IMG/VR virus record: IMGVR_UViG_3300043015_001357
Location: 1 to 59,150 of that record
Length of the DNA: 59,150 nucleotides
Reading direction: 5' to 3' (one strand)
Origin: a virus
Notes under the pieces: model-generated
Told to the model about the DNA's origin: nothing
Databases searched by the model: none
The model's input: the letters and a program-made list of their open reading frames with translations, nothing else
In this document: one piece after another, positions 6,160 through 36,774 of the stretch
How positions within the stretch are numbered: the first letter of the stretch is position 1
Layout of the letters: the number at the start of each line of letters is the position of its first letter
Made by a program: the position numbers and the translations under genes

Positions 6160-6643
6160 TGAATACTCCATCTCTTGCTCTTATACATTCGGCTTGAATC
6201 TCAAAGCGATGCTCCACTTGACCAAACAGAAGTCTCGGTTCAATCAGTTTTACAATCTCGTAATATACTTCACCATATCTTACGAAGTCGCCTTCTCTTA
6301 CATAGAGGTCTTGGTCTTCCGTTAAACGTCTTTTGTGAAAGTTAACCTTTATCTTAGTTGCTTTGTCGATAGCAACGTTGTCCATGAATGATGTCTCAAC
6401 CCCTTGGAACTCAACGAGAGCATGAACTCTCAAAGGAGGAAGAAATGTCTTCTCAATAGCTTCTCCATATAGAGGGTGATAAGCTGTAGCTTCAAGGTCA
6501 ATAGGGAAATACAGAACCTGCTGGCCAACAACACGCTCAATGATCTCGTCATTGACTTGTTTTACAAGATCACGTTCCTTTTCTCCAAAGAACATTGGAG
6601 GAGGAGGGGATGCTGGTTTTTTCCATTTGTTATCTTCTGACAC
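6149..6643 (-). CDS. Neck / head completion protein (gp14-like)
   Basis: A 164-residue protein with FFGEKERDLVKQVNDEIIER, then VGQQVLYFPIDLEAT and YGEAIEKTFLPPLRVHALVE. This pattern resembles gp14-type neck proteins (N-terminal helix, YxPxD, LYGEA.EK.F) that join the portal vertex to the tail. It overlaps the genes on both sides by about a dozen bases. It is shorter than T4 gp14 (256 residues). The assignment uses motif recognition plus position just before the gp15-like gene. Confidence 0.65.
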   Translation of the reverse strand: MSEDNKWKKPASPPPPMFFGEKERDLVKQVNDEIIERVVGQQVLYFPIDLEATAYHPLYGEAIEKTFLPPLRVHALVEFQGVETSFMDNVAIDKATKIKVNFHKRRLTEDQDLYVREGDFVRYGEVYYEIVKLIEPRLLFGQVEHRFEIQAECIRARDGVFNAE

Positions 6644-9104
6644 GGACTCTTATCCTCTTTTTATTTTCTGTTATGTTTTGTTGTGGCTTTAGCATTTTCG
6701 CTAAATACTTTTCAAGTTCCATTTGCATTCTCTCTGCAATGTCATCAATGCTTGCGTTATTCTTGAGAAAGTCTCCTGTTTTTTCTAGAATTTCTTTTGA
6801 GTAATCACTGTACATGCTAACACCAGCCTTAAATTCAATCTCATCATATTCTTCGATCTGTTCTGGAGTTACGTCTCCTCGCTCTGCATGCATTATTACA
6901 ATGTTTGGGTCTGTTTCTTTGTTCCATGCATCTTGACTTAAAGCTAACTTACCAGCTAGTTCATCATTTCCAAAAATTGTGTTGAAGAACTTAGCCATAA
7001 GTTCATAAGCGTTTTGTTGCATATTTTCCGGAATCTTTTCTTTGATCTCGGAAATATCGACGCTGCTTTCATCTCGGAAAGCAATGAAAGAAATATATTC
7101 TCCGCCAAAATAATCGTGCGCCTCTTCTTCTCTTTCGTCTTCGGGCCACCAAGAATCTTCAGGAAGACCATAGTCTTTGAGAACGTTTTGAATTACTTGT
7201 CTTTCTGATTCAATGACACCAAATTCTTCTAGTTTGTACTCTATCAATTGAATGGGGCCGTTATCATAATAATAATCAAAAGCATCAAATTTTTTCATAA
7301 TGTCTGGTAATGCCCCTTCAAGACCTCCTAGGTAAGCTGTCTCATCATCTAAGTCATAGCCTTGATAAACAATTTTAATCATCCAACTACCTTCATCATT
7401 TCTTTCAACAAATATATTGTTTGATTTTGGTAATTGATAATAATCATAAAATTCCCAATCAACAACCTCTGTAACAACAGAGTTAATTTCAGAACCATTA
7501 GCGCCTGGTGCGTTGATTTTAAACTTAACAATCAAATCCCACACATATGTGATTTCTCCGTCATATCCTTCGGAAGTGTCCCAATCAAAGGAAATAAATC
7601 CACCAGTATGTTCGTCAAAAATCTCATTTAATCTTCGCCTAATCATTTCCTCAGAACTTCCTCCGATTGAAGCCATTAAAGCTTCTTCGACATCGGGTTC
7701 GTATCTAACAGAGGTTCCTTGGAGAACAACGTCTCTATTGAACTTGCGGAACAACATAGGCAAAGTTTGAGCAACAGAGTGACCTGTGTCTTGATAACTT
7801 CCGCCATATCTTGTGAAGTTTGATAGAAATATTGTTGGCTTACCAAGATCTTGTGATCCTTGCTTGATAATCTCTTTAACTTCTTTTTCTTGCGCTTTGG
7901 AGACTCTATTATTGACAGCGTCTAAAAACCCCGGAACTTGTGGGCCGTAAATTTTTCCTTGTGGTACCGCAAGCCTTATTGGTTCTGAGTTTTCGTCTTT
8001 ATGAAACGCGACATTTTTGATTCTAATTCTAGAAGTTGGAACTAGTAAGTGAGCAGTTGCATCTCGTCGCATTTGATCAAAAAATATTTCTTGATCTCCT
8101 TCAACATCTAATGACTCTTGTGTTGGAGGAAACATTATGAAGTTCTTTGCCGGAACAATGTAGGCAATCATTCCATTGCCATACGCTTCAGAAAGAGCGC
8201 ATTTATTATAGTCATCAAAACCCATTTCACCTTTCATACTTGGAAGAGAATGACAAGATCTGATGCTTTGGTGATCGGACATTCTAAAGACATCAACAGG
8301 ATGGCGAGAATAGATTATGTAATTTCTCTCAAGGTATTGATCCATGTTTCTAACAAGATCATCAAAAGATTCAATAGCATATTTTGCAAAGTTTTCAAAA
8401 GATTCAAAATCGATTCTACTTTTTGTGAAGAATTCCTTCATTGTTAAGGAGGTAGATGTACCAAGCCAATAATCTTGAGCATCATAAAATTTCATAACCT
8501 TTCTGTATTCGTCTGCTGTGTGTTTTACAACTGGGTCACTAATTTTTGCTGGTAAAGAATATTTAGCTTCAGCAGGAAGTTTATCTAGTTTGCCTATTTT
8601 TGAGAGTTTTGCGTATCTTTTGGCTGCTTCAAAATGTTCTGCTCCGGCTTCTCTTTGAATTTTGTTTCTACTATTGTTAACAAAGTTGATAATGCCACCT
8701 AAAACCTTTGGTAAATTAAGAGTGATTGTTTTTCTAGAAACGCCTTGGTTTCCTTTTCCATCAATGAAATGAGAGACTTTTGTTTTGGAGCAAAGAATTT
8801 TTCCGCCTTTGACTTTACCAGCTAGTTTGCCTTTTGTTTCATCATGATATTCTAGATTGGATGCTGGATCTACTTGCCACCCAAAGGCATTGAGAGCAGA
8901 AATTGTGTTAGCTAGAGGTGTCTCTTTTTTGAGACCAGAAACAGGTTCGATAATTCTATAGGAATTTCCAAAGATGTTTCCAAAAGGTAATTCACTAACA
9001 GGGATTTCCAAAGCATCATTAAGGTATTCAATTTCTTGTTCTGTTGCTTCTTTGAGTTCTTGTTCTTTTAAAAATTTATTCCAATTTTCTAATATTAATT
9101 TCAT
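6630..9104 (-). CDS. Large tagged protein of unknown function (candidate capsid cargo)
   Basis: This 824-residue protein starts MKLILENWNKFLKEQELKE|A. The tag is of the same type as the 166-, 251- and 237-residue proteins elsewhere in the window, and LKE|A (19|20) fits a T4-type prohead-protease site. No standard domain is recognised. The most distinctive region is near residues 270-315: YSRHPVDVFRMSD, then SCHSLPS, then YNKCALSEAYGNGMIAYIV. It is rich in Cys, His and Ser and could be catalytic. The later half is acidic and the last residues (KKRIRVRVRR) are very basic, suggesting DNA contact. It sits between the gp13- and gp14-like neck genes, normally neighbours, so it appears to be an insertion. 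The tag interpretation is inference. Confidence 0.8.
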   Translation of the reverse strand: MKLILENWNKFLKEQELKEATEQEIEYLNDALEIPVSELPFGNIFGNSYRIIEPVSGLKKETPLANTISALNAFGWQVDPASNLEYHDETKGKLAGKVKGGKILCSKTKVSHFIDGKGNQGVSRKTITLNLPKVLGGIINFVNNSRNKIQREAGAEHFEAAKRYAKLSKIGKLDKLPAEAKYSLPAKISDPVVKHTADEYRKVMKFYDAQDYWLGTSTSLTMKEFFTKSRIDFESFENFAKYAIESFDDLVRNMDQYLERNYIIYSRHPVDVFRMSDHQSIRSCHSLPSMKGEMGFDDYNKCALSEAYGNGMIAYIVPAKNFIMFPPTQESLDVEGDQEIFFDQMRRDATAHLLVPTSRIRIKNVAFHKDENSEPIRLAVPQGKIYGPQVPGFLDAVNNRVSKAQEKEVKEIIKQGSQDLGKPTIFLSNFTRYGGSYQDTGHSVAQTLPMLFRKFNRDVVLQGTSVRYEPDVEEALMASIGGSSEEMIRRRLNEIFDEHTGGFISFDWDTSEGYDGEITYVWDLIVKFKINAPGANGSEINSVVTEVVDWEFYDYYQLPKSNNIFVERNDEGSWMIKIVYQGYDLDDETAYLGGLEGALPDIMKKFDAFDYYYDNGPIQLIEYKLEEFGVIESERQVIQNVLKDYGLPEDSWWPEDEREEEAHDYFGGEYISFIAFRDESSVDISEIKEKIPENMQQNAYELMAKFFNTIFGNDELAGKLALSQDAWNKETDPNIVIMHAERGDVTPEQIEEYDEIEFKAGVSMYSDYSKEILEKTGDFLKNNASIDDIAERMQMELEKYLAKMLKPQQNITENKKRIRVRVRR

Positions 9105-10639: not shown

Positions 10640-10730
10640 AATTAGTTTAAAAAAAGAAAACCCCCAACCGAAAGGAAGGGGGCTCTTATGAGTTAATCTA
10701 AGTTATAGATTAAGCTCCAGACTCTCCGAA
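10640..10730. repeat. Direct repeat copy 1: capsid-gene 3' end plus terminator
   Basis: This stretch matches 11218-11312 with only scattered substitutions and one-base gaps (roughly 85% identical by eye). It holds a terminator hairpin, the stop codon and the codons for the C-terminal GESGA. Here it forms the 3' end of the 166-residue tagged gene. Confidence 0.85.
10649..10682 (-). terminator. Terminator after the 166-residue gene (duplicated copy)
   Basis: The minus strand reads CCCCCTTCC, a short loop, then GGTTGGGGG and TTTTCTTTTTTT. It is a G/C stem with a small internal T/T loop and a T-rich tail. It is nearly identical to the terminator after the major capsid gene. Confidence 0.8.
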
Positions 10731-11210
10731 GATCTCTTTTTTTGCTGCCATTAGTTGTTGGATTTTTTCTTGATAATTACATCCGCCGAATTGCTCAATA
10801 AGTTCTTCTGTGGTTGGTTGGATTTTAACAACTTCATATGCTGCTTCTTCATCTGGAAAATCATAGCTAGGGTCTTCAAAATCCAGCATTCCCCAAGATT
10901 CTATATCTAACCAGCCCTTTTCGCCTTCGGTATCCCAATAGGTTCCCTCCGGCTCATAATACACTGCGACATGGCCGATCATTCTACCGTGGTTTTTCCA
11001 CATGTACTTGTTTGCGGCCACAACAAGGGTTCCTTCGCCATCAAATAAAACATTATTAATAGCCATGGCCGCCTCGGCACAAGCCCCGCCAAATCCCTTT
11101 ATATTGGCTTTTTCTAATATTTTAAATACGATATCTAAATCTTTCTGTGTTTTTGGTGCACCCTGATATTCGGCTAAGTATTTTCGCCAACTTTCAATTA
11201 TTACTTTCAT
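10710..11210 (-). CDS. Tagged candidate cysteine hydrolase (candidate capsid cargo)
   Basis: This 166-residue protein starts MKVIIESWRKYLAE|Y, the WRK-type tag with an LxE site at residue 14. The body shows the order Cys-His-Asp seen in papain/NlpC-like or transglutaminase-like folds. C44 starts a helix in FGGACAEAAMAIN, H80 is in GHVAVYY, and D93 is in YWDTEG. A peptidase, amidase or deamidase activity is therefore plausible but unproven. It lies directly downstream of the major capsid gene. Its last residues (FGESGA) copy the capsid protein's C-terminus (LLGESGAS), within a duplicated stretch that includes the terminator. Such an enzyme, if packaged, would act on the host right after DNA entry. 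Confidence 0.8.
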   Translation of the reverse strand: MKVIIESWRKYLAEYQGAPKTQKDLDIVFKILEKANIKGFGGACAEAAMAINNVLFDGEGTLVVAANKYMWKNHGRMIGHVAVYYEPEGTYWDTEGEKGWLDIESWGMLDFEDPSYDFPDEEAAYEVVKIQPTTEELIEQFGGCNYQEKIQQLMAAKKEIFGESGA

Positions 11211-11217
11211 ACAAATA

Positions 11218-11312
11218 ATTAGTTTAAAAAAAAGAAAACCCCCAACCGTAATGGAAGGGGGCTCTTATGGTCTAATCTAAGCTATAGATTAGGACGCTCC
11301 GGACTCTCCGAG
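11218..11312. repeat. Direct repeat copy 2: capsid-gene 3' end plus terminator
   Basis: The original copy at the end of the major capsid gene; see 10640-10730. It contains the GESGAS codons, stop, hairpin and T run. The two copies flank the 166-residue tagged gene. Confidence 0.85.
11226..11261 (-). terminator. Terminator after the major capsid gene
   Basis: The minus strand gives CCCCCTTCC, loop ATTAC, GGTTGGGGG, then TTTTCTTTTTTTT. It lies between the capsid stop and the tagged gene's start, so read-through would be limited unless that gene has its own promoter. Confidence 0.85.
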
Positions 11313-13037
11313 AAGGCCACGGACGATTACAAGACCGTACATGTCAGGGCGTACCATTTTCTTCGCATAGCGAGTCATGACACCCTTACGAGGTACGAAA
11401 TCCTCTGGGCCAAAGATTGTAGGAGTAGTTTGGAGCGGTACATACGGAGCATATACATATCCAGACTCAAGGAAGCTATTTCCTTTACGTCCTACAAGAA
11501 CCACATTACGTGGGAAGTAAGGATCAACGATAACGTCGAACTTACGGCTGAGAGATCCAACCTTAACAGCACCGATATCACCCTTGTCAGCATCAGCAGT
11601 TACGTTTGCACGGAATCCGCTAGTGAATTCAAGAATGTTAGCAACTTCAGGAGAAACGATTACGAAGTTCGCTCCACCACGAAGTGTCTTACGGTGGATT
11701 TGAGCAGAAACGTCATTGATAGTTTCAATGAGAGTCTCATACCATTCGCTAACTGTACCGGTGAAATCTGGAGCAGCAGCAGATGCACCAATCTCAGCAC
11801 CAGTAGTGCGGTTAACAAAAAGACCAGGTGAACGCGCCCAGTAGTAAGTTCCAGCAGTAGCGCCTTTGATGAGGTCTTCAAGGATCTCACGGTCGATTTC
11901 AAGAGCAATTTGCTCAGAAAGGATAGAAGTCAATTCTACTTCAGCATCCAAGTTGTGGTAAGCGTTCAAGTCTTGTCCAAGTTCTGGAGTCCACTTTGCT
12001 TTCAACTTCTTGGTCATTGCTGTGATAGCAATTGAATCAACCTTGATATCGATTTCAGGGATGTTTTCGTTTCCTTCAAGTCCCCAATAATCTGTACCCT
12101 TGATAGCACCAAGAGCAAGTCCTGAAGTTGTAAGATTATCAGTTTGTGTCCACTGAATTTCGTTACCAGCATCATTCATAGCAGCAATCATGTCAGTTGA
12201 CAATTGTGCTGGAGTACCAGAAGAAGCACCATCAGTATCAGTACCAACGAAAACCAACTTGATACGCTCGTTAGCTGCATCATAGCTGCTCAAACGACGG
12301 ATAAGACGACCGTGATATCCGTTAGAACCAGAAGCAATACCGTTTCCAATAGAAGAAGAAACGTTGATAGCAACAAGGTTCTTAAGGTTTACTTGGTCAA
12401 GACCGCTAGCAAGCACAGAAACAACAGCGAACTCAGTAGAGCCAGAAACGAAGTCTGGATCAAAACGAACAAGTTTGTCGTTAGAACCACCAAATGTGTC
12501 TTTACCACCATCTTGTGCAGTCAAAGTTACAGCATTAGTAGCAGAAGAACCAGTTGGAGAAGAATAACCGTTGTTCATTCCGTAAGGACCAACATCACGG
12601 TCAGCGTCGATACCATCAAGCGTAACACCTTCTGAGATTTCAGAAGCAAGTTTATCAGTACCATACAAAGATTGTCCTTGTGCATTTCCAAGACGCTCAC
12701 GGTCAAAAGAAAAATCAAGGAAGAAAATGAGACCAGATGGAAGGCTCATTGGCTGAACAGATACAAGATCGTTAGCGATAAGTCCGGCGAATACACGACG
12801 AACGATTGGGAATGCAACAGCAGCGAAACCTTCTACGTCTCCACCAGCCATTGTGTTAGATTCGCGAAGAAGTTCCTTCGCTTGGTTTTCAAGCAAACGA
12901 GCCATAGTTGACTTCTGATGCTCATTTTGAAGACCTTCAAGTAGACCGGTTTTTCCCCACTTGGAAAGAAGAGCAGAGCCTTCCTTCTTCATGTCACGGT
13001 TTACGATGCCTTCTGTAAGTGTTTCAATAATAGACAT
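11289..13037 (-). CDS. 23: Major capsid protein (gp23-like)
   Basis: A 582-residue protein with the T4 gp23 pattern. The N-terminal propeptide is helical and basic (LLSKWGKTGLLEGL, then ARLLENQAKELLRE|S), followed by FPIVRRVFAGLIANDLVSVQPM, which matches gp23's MVRRAIPNLIAFDICGVQPM. Cleavage by a gp21-type protease is predicted after LRE59. The C-terminal part includes GANFVIVSPEVANILE, VDPYFPRNVVLVGRKG and YAPYVPL, typical of this capsid fold. It follows the scaffold gene directly. AAGGAGG and an AATATTTA variant of the late element lie upstream. Slightly longer than T4 gp23 (521). Confidence 0.95.
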   Translation of the reverse strand: MSIIETLTEGIVNRDMKKEGSALLSKWGKTGLLEGLQNEHQKSTMARLLENQAKELLRESNTMAGGDVEGFAAVAFPIVRRVFAGLIANDLVSVQPMSLPSGLIFFLDFSFDRERLGNAQGQSLYGTDKLASEISEGVTLDGIDADRDVGPYGMNNGYSSPTGSSATNAVTLTAQDGGKDTFGGSNDKLVRFDPDFVSGSTEFAVVSVLASGLDQVNLKNLVAINVSSSIGNGIASGSNGYHGRLIRRLSSYDAANERIKLVFVGTDTDGASSGTPAQLSTDMIAAMNDAGNEIQWTQTDNLTTSGLALGAIKGTDYWGLEGNENIPEIDIKVDSIAITAMTKKLKAKWTPELGQDLNAYHNLDAEVELTSILSEQIALEIDREILEDLIKGATAGTYYWARSPGLFVNRTTGAEIGASAAAPDFTGTVSEWYETLIETINDVSAQIHRKTLRGGANFVIVSPEVANILEFTSGFRANVTADADKGDIGAVKVGSLSRKFDVIVDPYFPRNVVLVGRKGNSFLESGYVYAPYVPLQTTPTIFGPEDFVPRKGVMTRYAKKMVRPDMYGLVIVRGLLGESGAS

Positions 13038-26386: not shown

Positions 26387-26950
26387 TTATTCTCCAAAGG
26401 GTAGTGGCATTTGTTCGGCTTCAAATTGAGCACCTTTAACTAGTGATGTATACTTACCGTCTTCTGAGGCATGAAAGTATACTTGTTCTGCACTAACTAG
26501 TTTTTTTCCATCTATGTGAAAGAATTTGTTCTCTCCAAATGGATTGAACCCAAAAGGCACAAAGTCTTCAAGATCTTGTCCTTCCTTGGTCTCAATCACT
26601 GTACCAGAAACACCAGCAACCAAAGTTCTGTGTCCGGTCTGTGCTACTTTTTCTGCACCAGCTTCACTAATTTGAAACACTATTGGGCTTCCAAGACGAA
26701 TACAATTAGTGTAATAGAGAGGGGAACCTTTTCTGTTTCCTTTATTGTTAACTCCGTAGAGACCAATCATACCGTTCTTGCCTTGATTTCTATGAGTTCT
26801 ATTTGTATGACTCCATAATCTTTCACCTATTAGGTCGTCTCCATCTTTATAGTTCTCAACCGGTTTTAGCGAGTCATAATACTGCTCGTCTATCACCGCT
26901 TGCAATTCTTCTTTAACAATATTCTTTAGTTGTTCTGATGTGATTTCCAT
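26387..26950 (-). CDS. Tagged protein of unknown function next to the prohead protease
   Basis: A 187-residue protein starting MEITSEQLKNIVKEELQAVI, then DEQYYDS. The first 22 residues are a class-B tag with an IDE site at 20-22. The body contains LWSHTNRTHRNQGKNGMIGL, then SPLYYTNCIRLGSPIVFQIS, and ends EQMPLPFGE. The pattern of aromatic and basic residues is distinctive but I recognise no fold. The ATG overlaps the protease stop by one base, so the protein is made in the same amounts and time as the protease. Candidate internal head protein. Confidence 0.75.
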   Translation of the reverse strand: MEITSEQLKNIVKEELQAVIDEQYYDSLKPVENYKDGDDLIGERLWSHTNRTHRNQGKNGMIGLYGVNNKGNRKGSPLYYTNCIRLGSPIVFQISEAGAEKVAQTGHRTLVAGVSGTVIETKEGQDLEDFVPFGFNPFGENKFFHIDGKKLVSAEQVYFHASEDGKYTSLVKGAQFEAEQMPLPFGE

Positions 26951-27564
26951 TAGTCTTCCAATATCTTCTTAAATAAATCATCAACAATGTTTTGTTTTGC
27001 TTCGTTGATTTTATTCTCGTACATTCCACGTTGAGATTTAGGATATACAAAAGCATTTGGTGTTGATGGCTCGGAAACAATATCAAAACAGATGAGTTCA
27101 AAGTCTTCTTGAACAACAATTCCGCCACCCATTGATTCTTTTACAGAGCCAAGCCCACGAGAAGATATTCCAAGTTTAACACCAGCATTGATAAGATCTT
27201 TAAGGATACGACCAGAAGGCGTATCAAGGACTTTGATCTTACCCATAACATCCTTACCTTCCCACCATACATCTGTAATCATATGGGAGACATTCTTAAG
27301 GTTGATAACAGAATCATCAGGGTGATCAAGTTCACCACAGGCACGATTATCTTGAACAATCTTCTTGTAATTGTCAACTTCACGCTTTAAAACCTTAAAA
27401 GGATAAGATCTTCCGTTTCCGTTTTTCTTATCAGCAGTTTGAATACGACCGGACAAATATAGTGTGCCGTTTTCAACTTCTCTCTTTTCTCTCTCAGAAA
27501 GAAGATCTCGGCAAATTCCATCTTTGCAAAGTTCGTTAAATTCTGTTAATAGTTGTTTTGGCAT
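26950..27564 (-). CDS. 21: Prohead maturation protease (gp21-like)
   Basis: A 204-residue protein with the T4 gp21/S80-type serine protease pattern. It has NGRSYPFKVLKREVDNY, then GELDHPDDSVINLKNVSHMI with the catalytic histidine candidates H81/H94. KLGISSRGLGSV follows with the serine candidates S134/S135, and then EDFELICFDIVSEPSTPNAF. In T4 this enzyme cleaves after (L/I)xE in scaffold, capsid protein and internal proteins. Its own N-terminus has LLTE8|F, a possible self-cleavage site. The flanking genes (kinase, 187- and 136-residue proteins) carry matching N-terminal sites, so substrates and enzyme share an operon. Confidence 0.9.
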   Translation of the reverse strand: MPKQLLTEFNELCKDGICRDLLSEREKREVENGTLYLSGRIQTADKKNGNGRSYPFKVLKREVDNYKKIVQDNRACGELDHPDDSVINLKNVSHMITDVWWEGKDVMGKIKVLDTPSGRILKDLINAGVKLGISSRGLGSVKESMGGGIVVQEDFELICFDIVSEPSTPNAFVYPKSQRGMYENKINEAKQNIVDDLFKKILED

Positions 27565-28319
27565 TATGGTTCCTCTGCTATTTTTTTTAATAATTCTGTA
27601 TTATCAATAGATACAATTTCATCAAAACCCTCTTCCACAGAGGGGGGCTCATATCTAGAAATCATACTTTTAATCAATTTTAAATCAATTGTTTTAGATT
27701 TTCCCTGTTTTTTTGCTTCTTGATTTCTTTTCTCTGCAACTGCTGCGACAATTTCCGGCGATGGATATTTAAAGTCTACTGCGATTTTCTTATACTCGTC
27801 CTCACGTCCTTCAATAGCTCCAAGAGCACCTTTTCGTGCACCAGCGCTCATATTGGTCATATCTACTACAATATCTAAACCACTATCCTTAGCAGCATTA
27901 AAATTAGTCATATGTTCAGAATGCACCTCACCATTCGCTTTCATAACCTTTGAATAAACCTGTTTTGGAGCACCTGGCCATTTCATATATGAAGGAGCAG
28001 GTTCCACAAACCCATACTTAGAATGATGAGGTATTTTTTGTTTTGTTCCATCTTCAAGCTCTATCTCTTTCTCTTCGTTCGGAGGTATTAATGATGGGTC
28101 CACAAACATATCATCGTATGTCCATCCATAACTTTCAGCAATTTTTTCTGCTATAACATCTCTATTAATAATATATGGGTTGGTATCACCAAATGTACTT
28201 CTAATCCATGATGATTTGCCAACAGATGGCGGACCGACAAGAACAAAAATTTTCTTCATACCTTCCGTTTCTTCTTTTAAAAATCTTCTCCAAGATTCCA
28301 TAATCATTTTTGTTTTCAC
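27564..28319 (-). CDS. Tagged polynucleotide-kinase-like P-loop protein
   Basis: A 251-residue protein. The GTG at 28317-28319 is chosen because GGAG lies six bases before it; an upstream TTG overlaps the preceding terminator's T run. The N-terminus VKTKMIMESWRRFLKEETEG is the WRRFL tag, with LKE16 as site. Residues 22 onward start a P-loop kinase fold: IFVLVGPPSVGKSSW (Walker A at 29-36), NRDVIAEKI, and VVDMTNMSAGARKG. This arrangement (NRD after the P-loop, DxTNxxxxxR in the lid) is typical of polynucleotide-kinase/zeta-toxin-like enzymes. The substrate could be nucleic acid ends or a small molecule. Position beside the protease and the tag suggest packaging in the head. Confidence 0.8.
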   Translation of the reverse strand: MKTKMIMESWRRFLKEETEGMKKIFVLVGPPSVGKSSWIRSTFGDTNPYIINRDVIAEKIAESYGWTYDDMFVDPSLIPPNEEKEIELEDGTKQKIPHHSKYGFVEPAPSYMKWPGAPKQVYSKVMKANGEVHSEHMTNFNAAKDSGLDIVVDMTNMSAGARKGALGAIEGREDEYKKIAVDFKYPSPEIVAAVAEKRNQEAKKQGKSKTIDLKLIKSMISRYEPPSVEEGFDEIVSIDNTELLKKIAEEP

Positions 28320-28329
28320 TAAATTCTCC

Positions 28330-28354
28330 AAAAAATAAGCGGGCGCTACCCGCT
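28330..28354 (-). terminator. Rho-independent terminator upstream of the kinase gene
   Basis: The minus strand reads AGCGGG, loop TAGCG, CCCGCT, then TATTTTTT. It closes the unit containing portal to the 103-residue membrane gene. A second small hairpin (TCAGG/CCTGA) lies just before it. The protease operon downstream would then need its own promoter or partial read-through. Confidence 0.85.
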
Positions 28355-28727: not shown

Positions 28728-29441
28728 CTAGTTTACTAAAGAAGAATATATTTGACCAAATCTATATGAAGCAAAAGAAAACACTTTCTTCTCAAAATCT
28801 TCTTTATTTAAATAGTCATTTGATTCATGGTTTGCTTTGTACATATCCAACAAGGTGTCGCCGGCTGAATTATTAACTTTCTCTAGAGAATGATGTGAGG
28901 CGTTTTTATCATCGTGTTTTTTATATGGCGTTCCACAGTCATCTTCTGGGTCATCTGGTGTTTCATGTGTTGTGTAATCAAACTCATCATTACCTTTAGC
29001 GGTCTTTCTCTTGGTATATTCAGAACTATTGGCCATCTTATTCCATACTCGCTTTGCTCCCGGAAGTGTTCCGGAATACTTATCAGATGTTAAACCGGCT
29101 CCATCGGGAATAGCAGCAAAAGCAAGAGAGTATAAGAGTTTACCAAATTCTTGACCTTGCAAAGAAGGTTCGACATAAACAGCAGAGACTTGAAATGTGT
29201 TTGGGATACATTGTAATCTATCATCACCGGGCTCTGTTATTTGCATTGCTGCAATATAACCAATAACATAAAAGTCATCAACGTACTTTTGCTTTCTATA
29301 TAAAACAATGTGATGCTCTTCGTCATCATCATCCCAATGATAAACACACAAGTCTTTTTCTAAATGGTCATCGTCATAAGGAACAGTCGGCGCTGCCTCA
29401 TTTAAAACAAACTTTCGCCATTCATTCAATATCTTTTTCAT
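28728..29441 (-). CDS. Tagged GNAT-like acetyltransferase (candidate capsid cargo)
   Basis: A 237-residue protein starting MKKILNEWRKFVLNE|AAP. The tag is of the WRK type and ends in LNE|A, an ideal T4-type prohead-protease site. The body has GNAT features: a central strand (FQVSAVYVEP, about residues 83-92) followed by SLQGQEFGKLLYSLA, matching the acetyl-CoA pyrophosphate loop QxxGxG/A with variation. LTSDKYSGTLPGAKRVWNKM follows. A related body occurs in the 231-residue protein at 37160-37855 behind a different tag. The C-terminal third is charged and unassigned. Substrate unknown; modification of a host protein or RNA is plausible. The ATG overlaps the upstream stop. Confidence 0.75.
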   Translation of the reverse strand: MKKILNEWRKFVLNEAAPTVPYDDDHLEKDLCVYHWDDDDEEHHIVLYRKQKYVDDFYVIGYIAAMQITEPGDDRLQCIPNTFQVSAVYVEPSLQGQEFGKLLYSLAFAAIPDGAGLTSDKYSGTLPGAKRVWNKMANSSEYTKRKTAKGNDEFDYTTHETPDDPEDDCGTPYKKHDDKNASHHSLEKVNNSAGDTLLDMYKANHESNDYLNKEDFEKKVFSFASYRFGQIYSSLVN

Positions 29442-34943: not shown

Positions 34944-35330
34944 TTAATATTCCAAAAGCTCTTCTTCTAGACCATCTAAATAATCTTCTAAAACATGTTT
35001 TTCTCTTGGAGTTTTAGCATTTTTAATATCTTCTATAGTTTTATCTATTTCATACTCAATTGCTGCCTTTGGTCGCTTACCATATGGCATAGCAAACATT
35101 TGTTCTCTTGTTTTAAAATCTTGTGCTCCTGCCGCATCAATCTTGTCTTGGTCTACACCATCAAACATAAGTGCTAATTCTTTTGCTTGTTTGTAACCCT
35201 CTGGTCCTGTGCTTGCAATTTTAAGCAGTTTATCTAATTGTTCAGGAGTTATAGACATTTTTTGAGACTCTTTTAAATGCTCTAGTTCTTCACGGATAAG
35301 TTTTTTAAGCCTTTGTGTTGTTATTTTCAT
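34944..35330 (-). CDS. Class-B tagged small protein (candidate internal head protein)
   Basis: A 128-residue protein beginning MKITTQRLKKLIREELEHLK, then ES. The LKE21|S22 bond fits a T4-type prohead-protease site. The rest is helical and charged (GYKQAKELALMFDGVDQDKI; KTPREKHVLEDYLDGLEEEL) with no recognised fold. It overlaps the zinc-ribbon gene before it by 26 bases. It may be cargo or a core component. Confidence 0.7.
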   Translation of the reverse strand: MKITTQRLKKLIREELEHLKESQKMSITPEQLDKLLKIASTGPEGYKQAKELALMFDGVDQDKIDAAGAQDFKTREQMFAMPYGKRPKAAIEYEIDKTIEDIKNAKTPREKHVLEDYLDGLEEELLEY

Positions 35331-35697: not shown

Positions 35698-36774
35698 TTA
35701 AACCTCAATAATAGCATTTGGGTCTGTTCTCAACTGAACGACCATCTGTTCGATCTGTTTTGGTGGTAAAGCACGAAGTGCCTTGTACACACTTCTCAAT
35801 TGTCTTTTTTCTATTTGGCCTTTGTTGAGCATGTGGTTTACAATTTCAACATGCATTTTCTTAATGTCTTTATCGGAGAACTCGTCATAGGCTGCTCCAC
35901 CTTGCTCTAGAATTTCTTCAACTTTTCTATAGATTGTAAAAAATACATCAACCAACTGTTTGGTATCATCATCAGCAGTGTGGAGTTGAATTCGATTTGG
36001 GTCTCCAAAAACATTCATAAGTTGTTGAAGTTTCATTGACATGTATCTTTTTCCTTTCTCGGACATAACATACATAGCGTTTGCTTGTTCGTCTCCTTTA
36101 TCAGCAGCGTCTATCATAGCTTTCTTGAATAAGGTTCTAGAAAACAAAACTGTATCAAAAATATCAATGTCCGCAAATGCCGTGGAATCAATTCCATATT
36201 TATCACACAATTCAATGATTCTTCTTCTATCAAAGCTCATAATGTTGTGACCAACAGACACTTTGTTTTCTTGAGAATTAAACCAATCAACAAATTTTCT
36301 TAATGCTTGTTCTTCTTTCATTTCTTCTTCGCCTTGTTCGAAATCGTCATAATGAGTGTAGGCTAACATATCATCAACAGTCACGGGAAATTCTTGCCCT
36401 TTTTCTTTCATTTTCTGCTTTTTCATCGATAACTCAGAATTAGGATCTTTAAGTTCTTCTCGTTCCATTGCTTGTTGTTCAAGTGTCTCTGGGTTGAGAG
36501 AACATTTGATTACAATGCTGTCGTGATAATCAGATGGAGGAGGTTTTGAGATGTCATCAATTTTATAAGAGAAAGCAGCAAATTGCGTGATTTGTCCGTC
36601 AAATCCAATTGTCTCTAAATCCCAAAACACCCAAGTTTTTCCATTTAGTTCGTCTTTCATAAATTTTAAAGCAGCATTTGGTGAAATAAAACCAAGATTG
36701 CTTAGGTCTTCGTCTAATACGGCTTCAAGCTCTTCTTTGATAATTCTTCTTATAGTTTGTTGATCTATTCTCAT
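35698..36774 (-). CDS. Tagged DEDD 3'-5' exonuclease (candidate capsid cargo)
   Basis: A 358-residue protein starting MRIDQQTIRRIIKEELEAVL, then DED: a class-B tag with LDE20-22 as site. The body has the exonuclease motifs of the DnaQ/RNase T type. WDLETIGFDG carries D52 and E54. GHNIMSFDRRRI near residue 175 is motif II, and LHTADDDTKQLVD near residue 270 resembles motif III with His and Asp. Such enzymes remove nucleotides from 3' ends of DNA or RNA. A copy with a capsid-type tag could act on host nucleic acid or protect/process incoming DNA. The start overlaps the upstream stop as ATGA. Confidence 0.82.
   Translation of the reverse strand: MRIDQQTIRRIIKEELEAVLDEDLSNLGFISPNAALKFMKDELNGKTWVFWDLETIGFDGQITQFAAFSYKIDDISKPPPSDYHDSIVIKCSLNPETLEQQAMEREELKDPNSELSMKKQKMKEKGQEFPVTVDDMLAYTHYDDFEQGEEEMKEEQALRKFVDWFNSQENKVSVGHNIMSFDRRRIIELCDKYGIDSTAFADIDIFDTVLFSRTLFKKAMIDAADKGDEQANAMYVMSEKGKRYMSMKLQQLMNVFGDPNRIQLHTADDDTKQLVDVFFTIYRKVEEILEQGGAAYDEFSDKDIKKMHVEIVNHMLNKGQIEKRQLRSVYKALRALPPKQIEQMVVQLRTDPNAIIEV

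What the first reader, a model, noticed from the sequence alone, without database searches (positions are those of the whole stretch)
10710..11210. Candidate Cys-His-Asp hydrolase carried as capsid cargo
Behind the tag, C44 (at the start of a helix in GACAEAA), H80 (GHVAVYY) and D93 (YWDTEG) occur in the order and spacing expected of papain/NlpC or transglutaminase-like folds. An injected peptidase or amidase could disarm host defences immediately on entry.
Basis: inference. Interest (0 to 1): 0.72.

Follow-up and report, generated by a model that had tools for sequence, protein, structure and literature searches.

The report
Tagged papain-like enzyme in phage heads
A marine T4-like phage carries, next to its capsid gene, a small protein that looks like a cysteine-based amide-cutting enzyme and bears an N-terminal leader shared by many unrelated phage proteins, so it is probably packed into the virus head and delivered into the bacterium at infection; neither its packaging nor its activity has been tested.

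Summary
Window 10710-11210 (-) is a real 166-aa gene, directly downstream of gp23 and under purifying selection (dN/dS about 0.06-0.11). Six IMG/VR relatives exist (60-87% identical). C44, H80 and D93 are invariant; H80 is the only invariant His. Two AlphaFold models (pLDDT 75 and 83) put C44 at a helix N-terminus, H80 at a strand start and D93 at the end of the next strand. Two structure-only phage neighbours share the C-H-D order and spacing. The spacing (36/13) resembles the Cys-His-Asp deamidase/acyltransferase group (38-40/15). No Pfam, PHROG or NCBIfam family matches, so NlpC/P60, CHAP and transglutaminase membership is unsupported. The leader MKLLxENWRx[YF]LxE heads at least 203 ORFs in 108 unrelated clusters, with Glu14 in 90%, and every sampled contig of 119 kb or more encodes a gp21-type prohead protease. 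Best reading: head cargo of a new papain-like family, probably acting on a host amide. Packaging, cleavage, activity and target are all unshown.

The parts
10710..11210 (-). 166-aa tagged protein with a predicted papain-like Cys-His-Asp fold
   Evidence: relatives; dN/dS; AlphaFold; fold neighbours
11169..11210 (-). N-terminal leader MKVIIESWRKYLAE (residues 1-14), proposed capsid-targeting sequence ending in the prohead-protease-like motif LxE; E6 offers a second possible site
   Evidence: same leader on 203 ORFs in 108 clusters, E14 in 182 of 203; low-confidence helix outside the folded core
11079..11081 (-). codon of C44, proposed nucleophile, second residue of helix 43-55
10971..10973 (-). 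codon of H80, proposed catalytic His, second residue of strand 79-85
   Evidence: only invariant His
10932..10934 (-). codon of D93, proposed third residue, last residue of strand 90-93, in YWDTEG
11289..13037 (-). major capsid protein gp23, immediately upstream
   Evidence: PF07068 E 1.3e-74; PHROG major head protein
26950..27564 (-). prohead protease (gp21, Peptidase_S77), the enzyme expected to remove the leader
   Evidence: PF03420 E 5.1e-34; PHROG head maturation protease E 1.7e-61
6630..9104 (-). 824-aa ORF with the same leader (MKLILENWNKFLKE); second putative cargo of this phage
   Evidence: no family match; homologue with leader in L006
27564..28331 (-). 255-aa P-loop kinase-like ORF with the leader variant MIMESWRRFLKE
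   Evidence: PF13671 AAA_33 E 2.1e-10; sequence
28728..29441 (-). 237-aa GNAT-like ORF with the leader variant MKKILNEWRKFVLNE
   Evidence: PF00583 E 1e-4
10649..10712 (.). copy of the gp23 3' flank including an intrinsic terminator, after the candidate gene
   Evidence: 64-nt direct repeat, 81% identical to 11228-11291; hairpin -18.1 kcal/mol, z -3.55
11228..11291 (.). gp23 3' flank with intrinsic terminator, between gp23 and the candidate

Best explanation
The protein is a head-packaged enzyme of a previously unrecognised papain-like family. The 14-residue leader recruits it to the prohead core (inferred). The S77 prohead protease probably cuts the leader at the LxE motif, leaving a mature protein of about 152 residues (inferred). 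It is ejected with the DNA (inferred). In the host, C44 at the helix N-terminus, activated by H80 and D93, attacks a carbonyl of an amide or acyl substrate (triad supported by prediction, chemistry not shown). Its spacing and fold neighbours point to side-chain amide chemistry on a specific host protein (glutamine deamidation or a related acyl transfer) or a restricted peptidase, rather than peptidoglycan hydrolysis. The target is unknown.
For: Two AlphaFold models, of relatives about 60% identical, show the same helix-strand-hairpin layout with the three residues at papain-like positions. For model 1, the only PDB chains with Z of 2 or more among 313 aligned are 2hly, OspI and MOA, all papain-like (identities from PMC10318531, and the entry titles). 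For model 2, 2hly is again top (Z 4.2), with MOA and the amide synthase ShGdmF also listed. BFVD neighbours SRUTV-1 (C12/H44/D56) and AR9 (C50/H85/D96) carry the same order and similar spacing; a tight C-H-D..G motif occurs in 3 of 469 ORFs searched, two of them these. Literature triads: SseI 178/216/231, PMT 1165/1205/1220, NAT 69/107/122 (PMC3498931) against 44/80/93 here. The leader sits on 108 unrelated clusters including NUDIX, kinase, GNAT, zeta-toxin-like, HAD and M23 proteins, with Glu14 in 182 of 203; all 11 contigs of 119 kb or more that were tested encode Peptidase_S77. The order gp22-gp23-candidate is kept in L006.
Against: Fold scores are low (best Z 5.2, no Foldseek PDB hit at E below 0.1), from only 7 aligned sequences. 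Model 2's list also holds clearly unrelated chains at Z about 3. The top neighbour, 2hly, has Ser in place of Cys (PMC10318531). Profile comparison with the AR9 and SRUTV-1 proteins finds no sequence relation. No virion proteomics, cleavage data or activity data exist. The residue after E14 in the tag is often not the Ala/Gly/Ser that I recall for gp21 sites. A tagged Peptidase_M23 shows that the leader also rides on a cell-wall-type enzyme.
Confidence: 0.55

Rival explanations
1. It is a papain-like peptidase that works inside the prohead or virion, helping head maturation or trimming other tagged cargo, not a host-acting effector.
For: It lies directly after gp23 here and in L006; structural gene sets of large phages can include extra group-specific peptidases (PMC7824862).
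Against: It is patchy: six relatives among 2.9 million IMG/VR contigs, and in L008 it sits in a cargo island with no recognisable gp23 nearby. An S77 protease is already present. A maturation enzyme should be conserved with gp23.
Confidence: 0.15
2. It has the papain-like fold but is a non-catalytic binding protein, an injected inhibitor comparable to T4 internal protein I.
For: T4 internal proteins are diverse defence inhibitors that share only the targeting sequence (PMC3012670); papain-like families without catalysis exist (PMC10318531).
Against: All three triad residues are invariant, H80 being the only invariant His.
Confidence: 0.13
3. It is a peptidoglycan amidase or endopeptidase of NlpC/P60 or CHAP type used for entry or lysis.
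For: Fold class is shared at superfamily level; one other tagged ORF is a Peptidase_M23.
Against: No NlpC/CHAP profile match at E up to 10; the N-terminus is the shared leader, not an evident secretion signal.
Confidence: 0.07
4. The triad is coincidental and the protein has another fold.
For: Low structural Z-scores and a shallow alignment.
Against: The same neighbours recur with two models, and independent structural neighbours share the motif.
Confidence: 0.1

Closest known systems
DUF2026 (PF09641), PDB 2hly
   Same: Top structural neighbour of both models: Z 5.2, rmsd 5.8, 117 aligned; and Z 4.2, rmsd 5.2, 117 aligned
   Different: 8-9% identity, no profile match, Ser replaces the Cys in 2hly (PMC10318531)
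OspI and the Cys-His-Asp glutamine deamidase / acyltransferase group (SseI, PMT C3, NAT)
   Same: Papain-like fold (3b21 Z 2.9, rmsd 5.9, 98 aligned); C-H 36 and H-D 13 here against 38-40 and 15 in SseI, PMT and NAT (PMC3498931)
   Different: Smaller; phage-encoded with a head-type leader; no sequence match to a deamidase profile
Phage_YunG-like (PF24591), Bacillus phage AR9 g175
   Same: Structural neighbour in BFVD (prob 0.47 and 0.63); C50/H85/D96 and YDIDGE resembling YWDTEGE
   Different: PF24591 does not match the candidate; no profile-profile relation; the AR9 protein lacks the leader
T4 internal proteins and Alt (capsid-targeting sequence, gp21 cleavage)
   Same: Short N-terminal leader on otherwise unrelated proteins, ending in an LxE-type motif, in phages with an S77 prohead protease (PMC3012670, PMC5694885)
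   Different: Leader sequence differs; packaging and cleavage not shown; this leader was not found in cultured phages
Polyvalent proteins of phages and conjugative elements
   Same: Proposed injected effectors with GNAT and kinase domains (PMC5512222), as seen among the tagged ORFs
   Different: Here mostly small separate proteins share one leader; 'papain', 'NlpC' and 'cysteine peptidase' do not occur in that paper's text

Membership tests
Papain-like cysteine hydrolase superfamily | Catalytic Cys at the N-terminus of the core helix, His and an acidic/amide residue on following strands | tested here: met
   C44 in H43-55, H80 in E79-85, D93 in E90-93; same layout in second model; placement in predicted models only, distances not measured
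Papain-like cysteine hydrolase superfamily | Fold shared with solved members | tested here: inconclusive
   Top neighbours papain-like but best Z only 5.2 and 4.2
Papain-like cysteine hydrolase superfamily | Triad residues within contact distance | not testable with these tools
   No coordinates are returned
Papain-like cysteine hydrolase superfamily | Thiol-dependent hydrolase or transferase activity | not testable with these tools
   Needs bench work
NlpC/P60 (PF00877) | Profile match | tested here: not met
   No Pfam family at E up to 10
CHAP (PF05257) | Profile match | tested here: not met
   No Pfam family at E up to 10
Transglut_core (PF01841) | Profile match | tested here: not met
   No Pfam family at E up to 10
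NlpC/P60, CHAP, transglutaminase | Closest fold among solved structures | tested here: inconclusive
   Only Foldseek's own top chains were aligned
DUF2026 (PF09641) | Profile match above cut-off | tested here: not met
   No match in the window at E up to 10
Phage_YunG-like (PF24591) | Profile match above cut-off | tested here: not met
   No match at E up to 10; hhalign with AR9 g175 not significant
T4-type internal (CTS) head proteins | Shared N-terminal leader on unrelated proteins | tested here: met
   108 clusters share the leader
T4-type internal (CTS) head proteins | Prohead protease cleavage motif at the leader end | tested here: inconclusive
   E14 in 182 of 203, but the next residue is unrestricted and no cleavage data exist
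T4-type internal (CTS) head proteins | Presence in the phage of an S77 prohead protease | tested here: met
   Window; 11 of 11 tested contigs of at least 119 kb
T4-type internal (CTS) head proteins | Presence in the mature head and ejection | not testable with these tools
   Needs virion proteomics

The most novel reading that the evidence does not exclude
Uncultured marine T4-like phages share a modular head-loading leader that carries 100 or more cargo families, among them at least three separate papain-like Cys-His-Asp proteins (this family, a YunG-like one and a Tox-PLDMTX-like one), so phages deliver deamidase-type effectors into bacteria at entry, much as bacteria deliver them into eukaryotic cells.
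Probability: 0.35. Interest if true: 0.75.

Novelty: new variant of a known kind. Interest (0 to 1): 0.52.

Why it matters
Proteins that a phage injects with its DNA act before any phage gene is expressed, and few of their activities are known beyond T4 Alt, the internal proteins and a few others. A papain-like amide-modifying enzyme as head cargo would add a chemistry to that list. The shared leader gives a sequence handle for listing the whole cargo set of an uncultured marine phage group, which makes the question of what these phages inject directly testable.

Tried and rejected
Pfam, PHROGs, NCBIfam and PADLOC for the candidate: no meaningful match. Sequence search of the PDB: chance hits only. 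Cultured phages: no match at E up to 10; reference bacterial genomes: none. Degenerate GH(V/I)AV..G.Y(W/F/Y)D pattern in IMG/VR: only the same six contigs, so no diverged homologues were found to test the triad more severely. Foldseek against PDB for model 1: no hit at E below 0.1. hhalign against the AR9 and SRUTV-1 neighbours: not significant, so that kinship rests on structure and motif. NlpC/P60, CHAP and transglutaminase do not appear in the aligned fold lists, which does not exclude them. Leader query against cultured phages: three insignificant hits. Literature: no paper found holding papain-like, ejection-protein, cysteine-protease and internal-head-protein terms together. The conservation argument alone was set aside because about half of all columns are invariant.

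Full report
What is there. The window (59,150 bases, an IMG/VR virus record) is part of a T4-like phage. Read on the minus strand it holds head genes including gp23 at 11289-13037 (PF07068, E 1.3e-74) and an S77 prohead protease at 26950-27564 (PF03420, E 5.1e-34); gp20, gp22 and gp17 are named here by position and relatives. The best matches of gp23 among cultured phages are under 60% identical and include Flavobacterium phage immuto and Rhodothermus phage RM378, which suggests, without proving it, a Bacteroidota host. The candidate lies 78 bases downstream of gp23 on the same strand.

The observation. The 166-aa ORF starts MKVIIESWRKYLAE and holds C44, H80 and D93 as described. Several kinds of query recovered the same six related contigs in IMG/VR, and none in cultured phages or in reference bacterial genomes. 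Pairwise dN/dS with the window copy is 0.06-0.11, with saturated synonymous sites in several pairs, so it is a selected protein. All three residues are invariant, but 81 of 166 columns are too, so this alone proves little. H80 is the only invariant His; Cys is invariant at 44 and 144.

Fold. AlphaFold2 with seven sequences gave pLDDT 75 for the window protein, with the leader outside the confident core, and 83 for the core of a relative 60% identical. Both show a helix that begins at the Cys, a strand beginning at the His and a hairpin partner strand ending at the Asp. For the second model 2hly again leads (Z 4.2, rmsd 5.2, 117 aligned), with MOA (3.2) and geldanamycin amide synthase ShGdmF (2.9), but also unrelated chains near Z 3. 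These Z-scores are low by the tool's own standard, so the fold is likely, not settled.

Independent check of the triad. Structure search of viral proteins returned, among unnamed hits, proteins of Salinibacter phage SRUTV-1 and Bacillus phage AR9 with both models. I identified them in the phage records by length, and their sequences show C12/H44/D56 and C50/H85/D96, the same order and nearly the same spacing as C44/H80/D93, with D..G after the Asp in all three. A tight version of this motif occurs in 3 of 469 ORFs from the phage DNA examined, and two of the three are these proteins; the pattern was written after seeing them, so this is a rough control. AR9 g175 belongs to Pfam Phage_YunG-like. 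No sequence relation to the candidate was detectable.

Which kind of papain-like protein. The spacing between the residues is 36 and 13. Published triads give 38 and 15 for SseI, 40 and 15 for PMT C3 and 38 and 15 for an arylamine N-acetyltransferase (PMC3498931). The fold neighbours fall largely in the group that the review calls cluster III, mostly deamidases and transglutaminases. No profile of any of these families matches, so this is a statement about how it probably works, not a filing into a family. Peptidase action on a specific protein remains open.

The leader. The same leader occurs in the window on the 824-aa ORF at 6630-9104, with variants on a P-loop kinase-like ORF (27564-28331) and a GNAT-like ORF (28728-29441). 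From the loci fetched I collected 203 distinct tagged ORFs in 108 clusters unrelated behind residue 16. Glu at position 14 was not part of the DNA pattern, yet is present in 182 of 203, giving an LxE ending like gp21-type sites; E6 offers another, and T4 Alt is cut after ITE-6 (PMC5694885). The residue after E14 is variable, which is a caveat. Eleven of eleven tested contigs of at least 119 kb encode Peptidase_S77; the five shorter ones, which may be fragments, do not. The cargo includes NUDIX, AAA/zeta-toxin-like kinases, protein kinases, GNAT, HAD, nucleotidyltransferase, ParB-like and one Peptidase_M23 domain. In L008 the candidate's relative sits in a row of tagged genes. This is the anatomy of the T4 internal proteins, which share only a capsid-targeting sequence (PMC3012670). 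That these proteins are packed and ejected is inferred.

More than one papain-like cargo. Two other tagged ORFs carry the same kind of triad: L073:1454-1891 (C24/H65/D76; PF24591 E 0.0033) and L136:4584-4943 (C25/H64/D76; PF15645 Tox-PLDMTX E 4.6e-4). Both scores lie below the curated cut-offs. The YunG-like one has ten loci in IMG/VR. If real, papain-like proteins have been put behind this leader more than once.

How the gene may have been laid down. In the window the candidate is followed by a copy of the gp23 3' flank: 64 nt, 81% identical, with an intrinsic terminator of the same energy. The candidate also ends in GESGA, like gp23 (LLGESGAS), whereas its closest relative ends in FDK and lacks the copy. 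This suggests recombination at the gp23 terminator. The order gp22-gp23-candidate is kept in L006, but in the other loci the gene lies without recognisable gp23 nearby.

Verdict. The host-defence role is a hypothesis.

Noticed in passing
window 10649-10712 and 11228-11291: Duplicated gp23 3' flank with intrinsic terminator after the candidate; the candidate's last residues GESGA match the gp23 C-terminus (LLGESGAS) and are missing in its closest relative, suggesting recombination at the terminator.
   Followed up: partly
L073:1454-1891 (+): Another ORF with the same leader and a C24/H65/D76 triad, weakly matching Phage_YunG-like; ten loci in IMG/VR.
   Followed up: partly
L136:4584-4943 (-): Tagged 120-aa ORF with C25/H64/D76 and a sub-threshold match to Tox-PLDMTX (papain-like fold), E 4.6e-4.
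   Followed up: partly
L140:3445-3918 (+): Tagged ORF with HVGFVLKDGRMKD early and ENCGSFVF late, which looks like a circularly permuted NlpC/P60-type order; no Pfam match.
   Followed up: no
Viral contigs, 203 tagged ORFs: The leader MKLLxENWRxYLxE heads at least 108 unrelated protein clusters in IMG/VR but was not found in 50,697 cultured phage records.
   Followed up: partly
window 34944-35330, 35698-36774, 26387-26950 (-): A second recurrent N-terminal pattern (RLKKLIREELEHL / TIRRIIKEELEAVLDE / QLKNIVKEELQAVIDE) on several unrelated ORFs, possibly another targeting leader.
   Followed up: no
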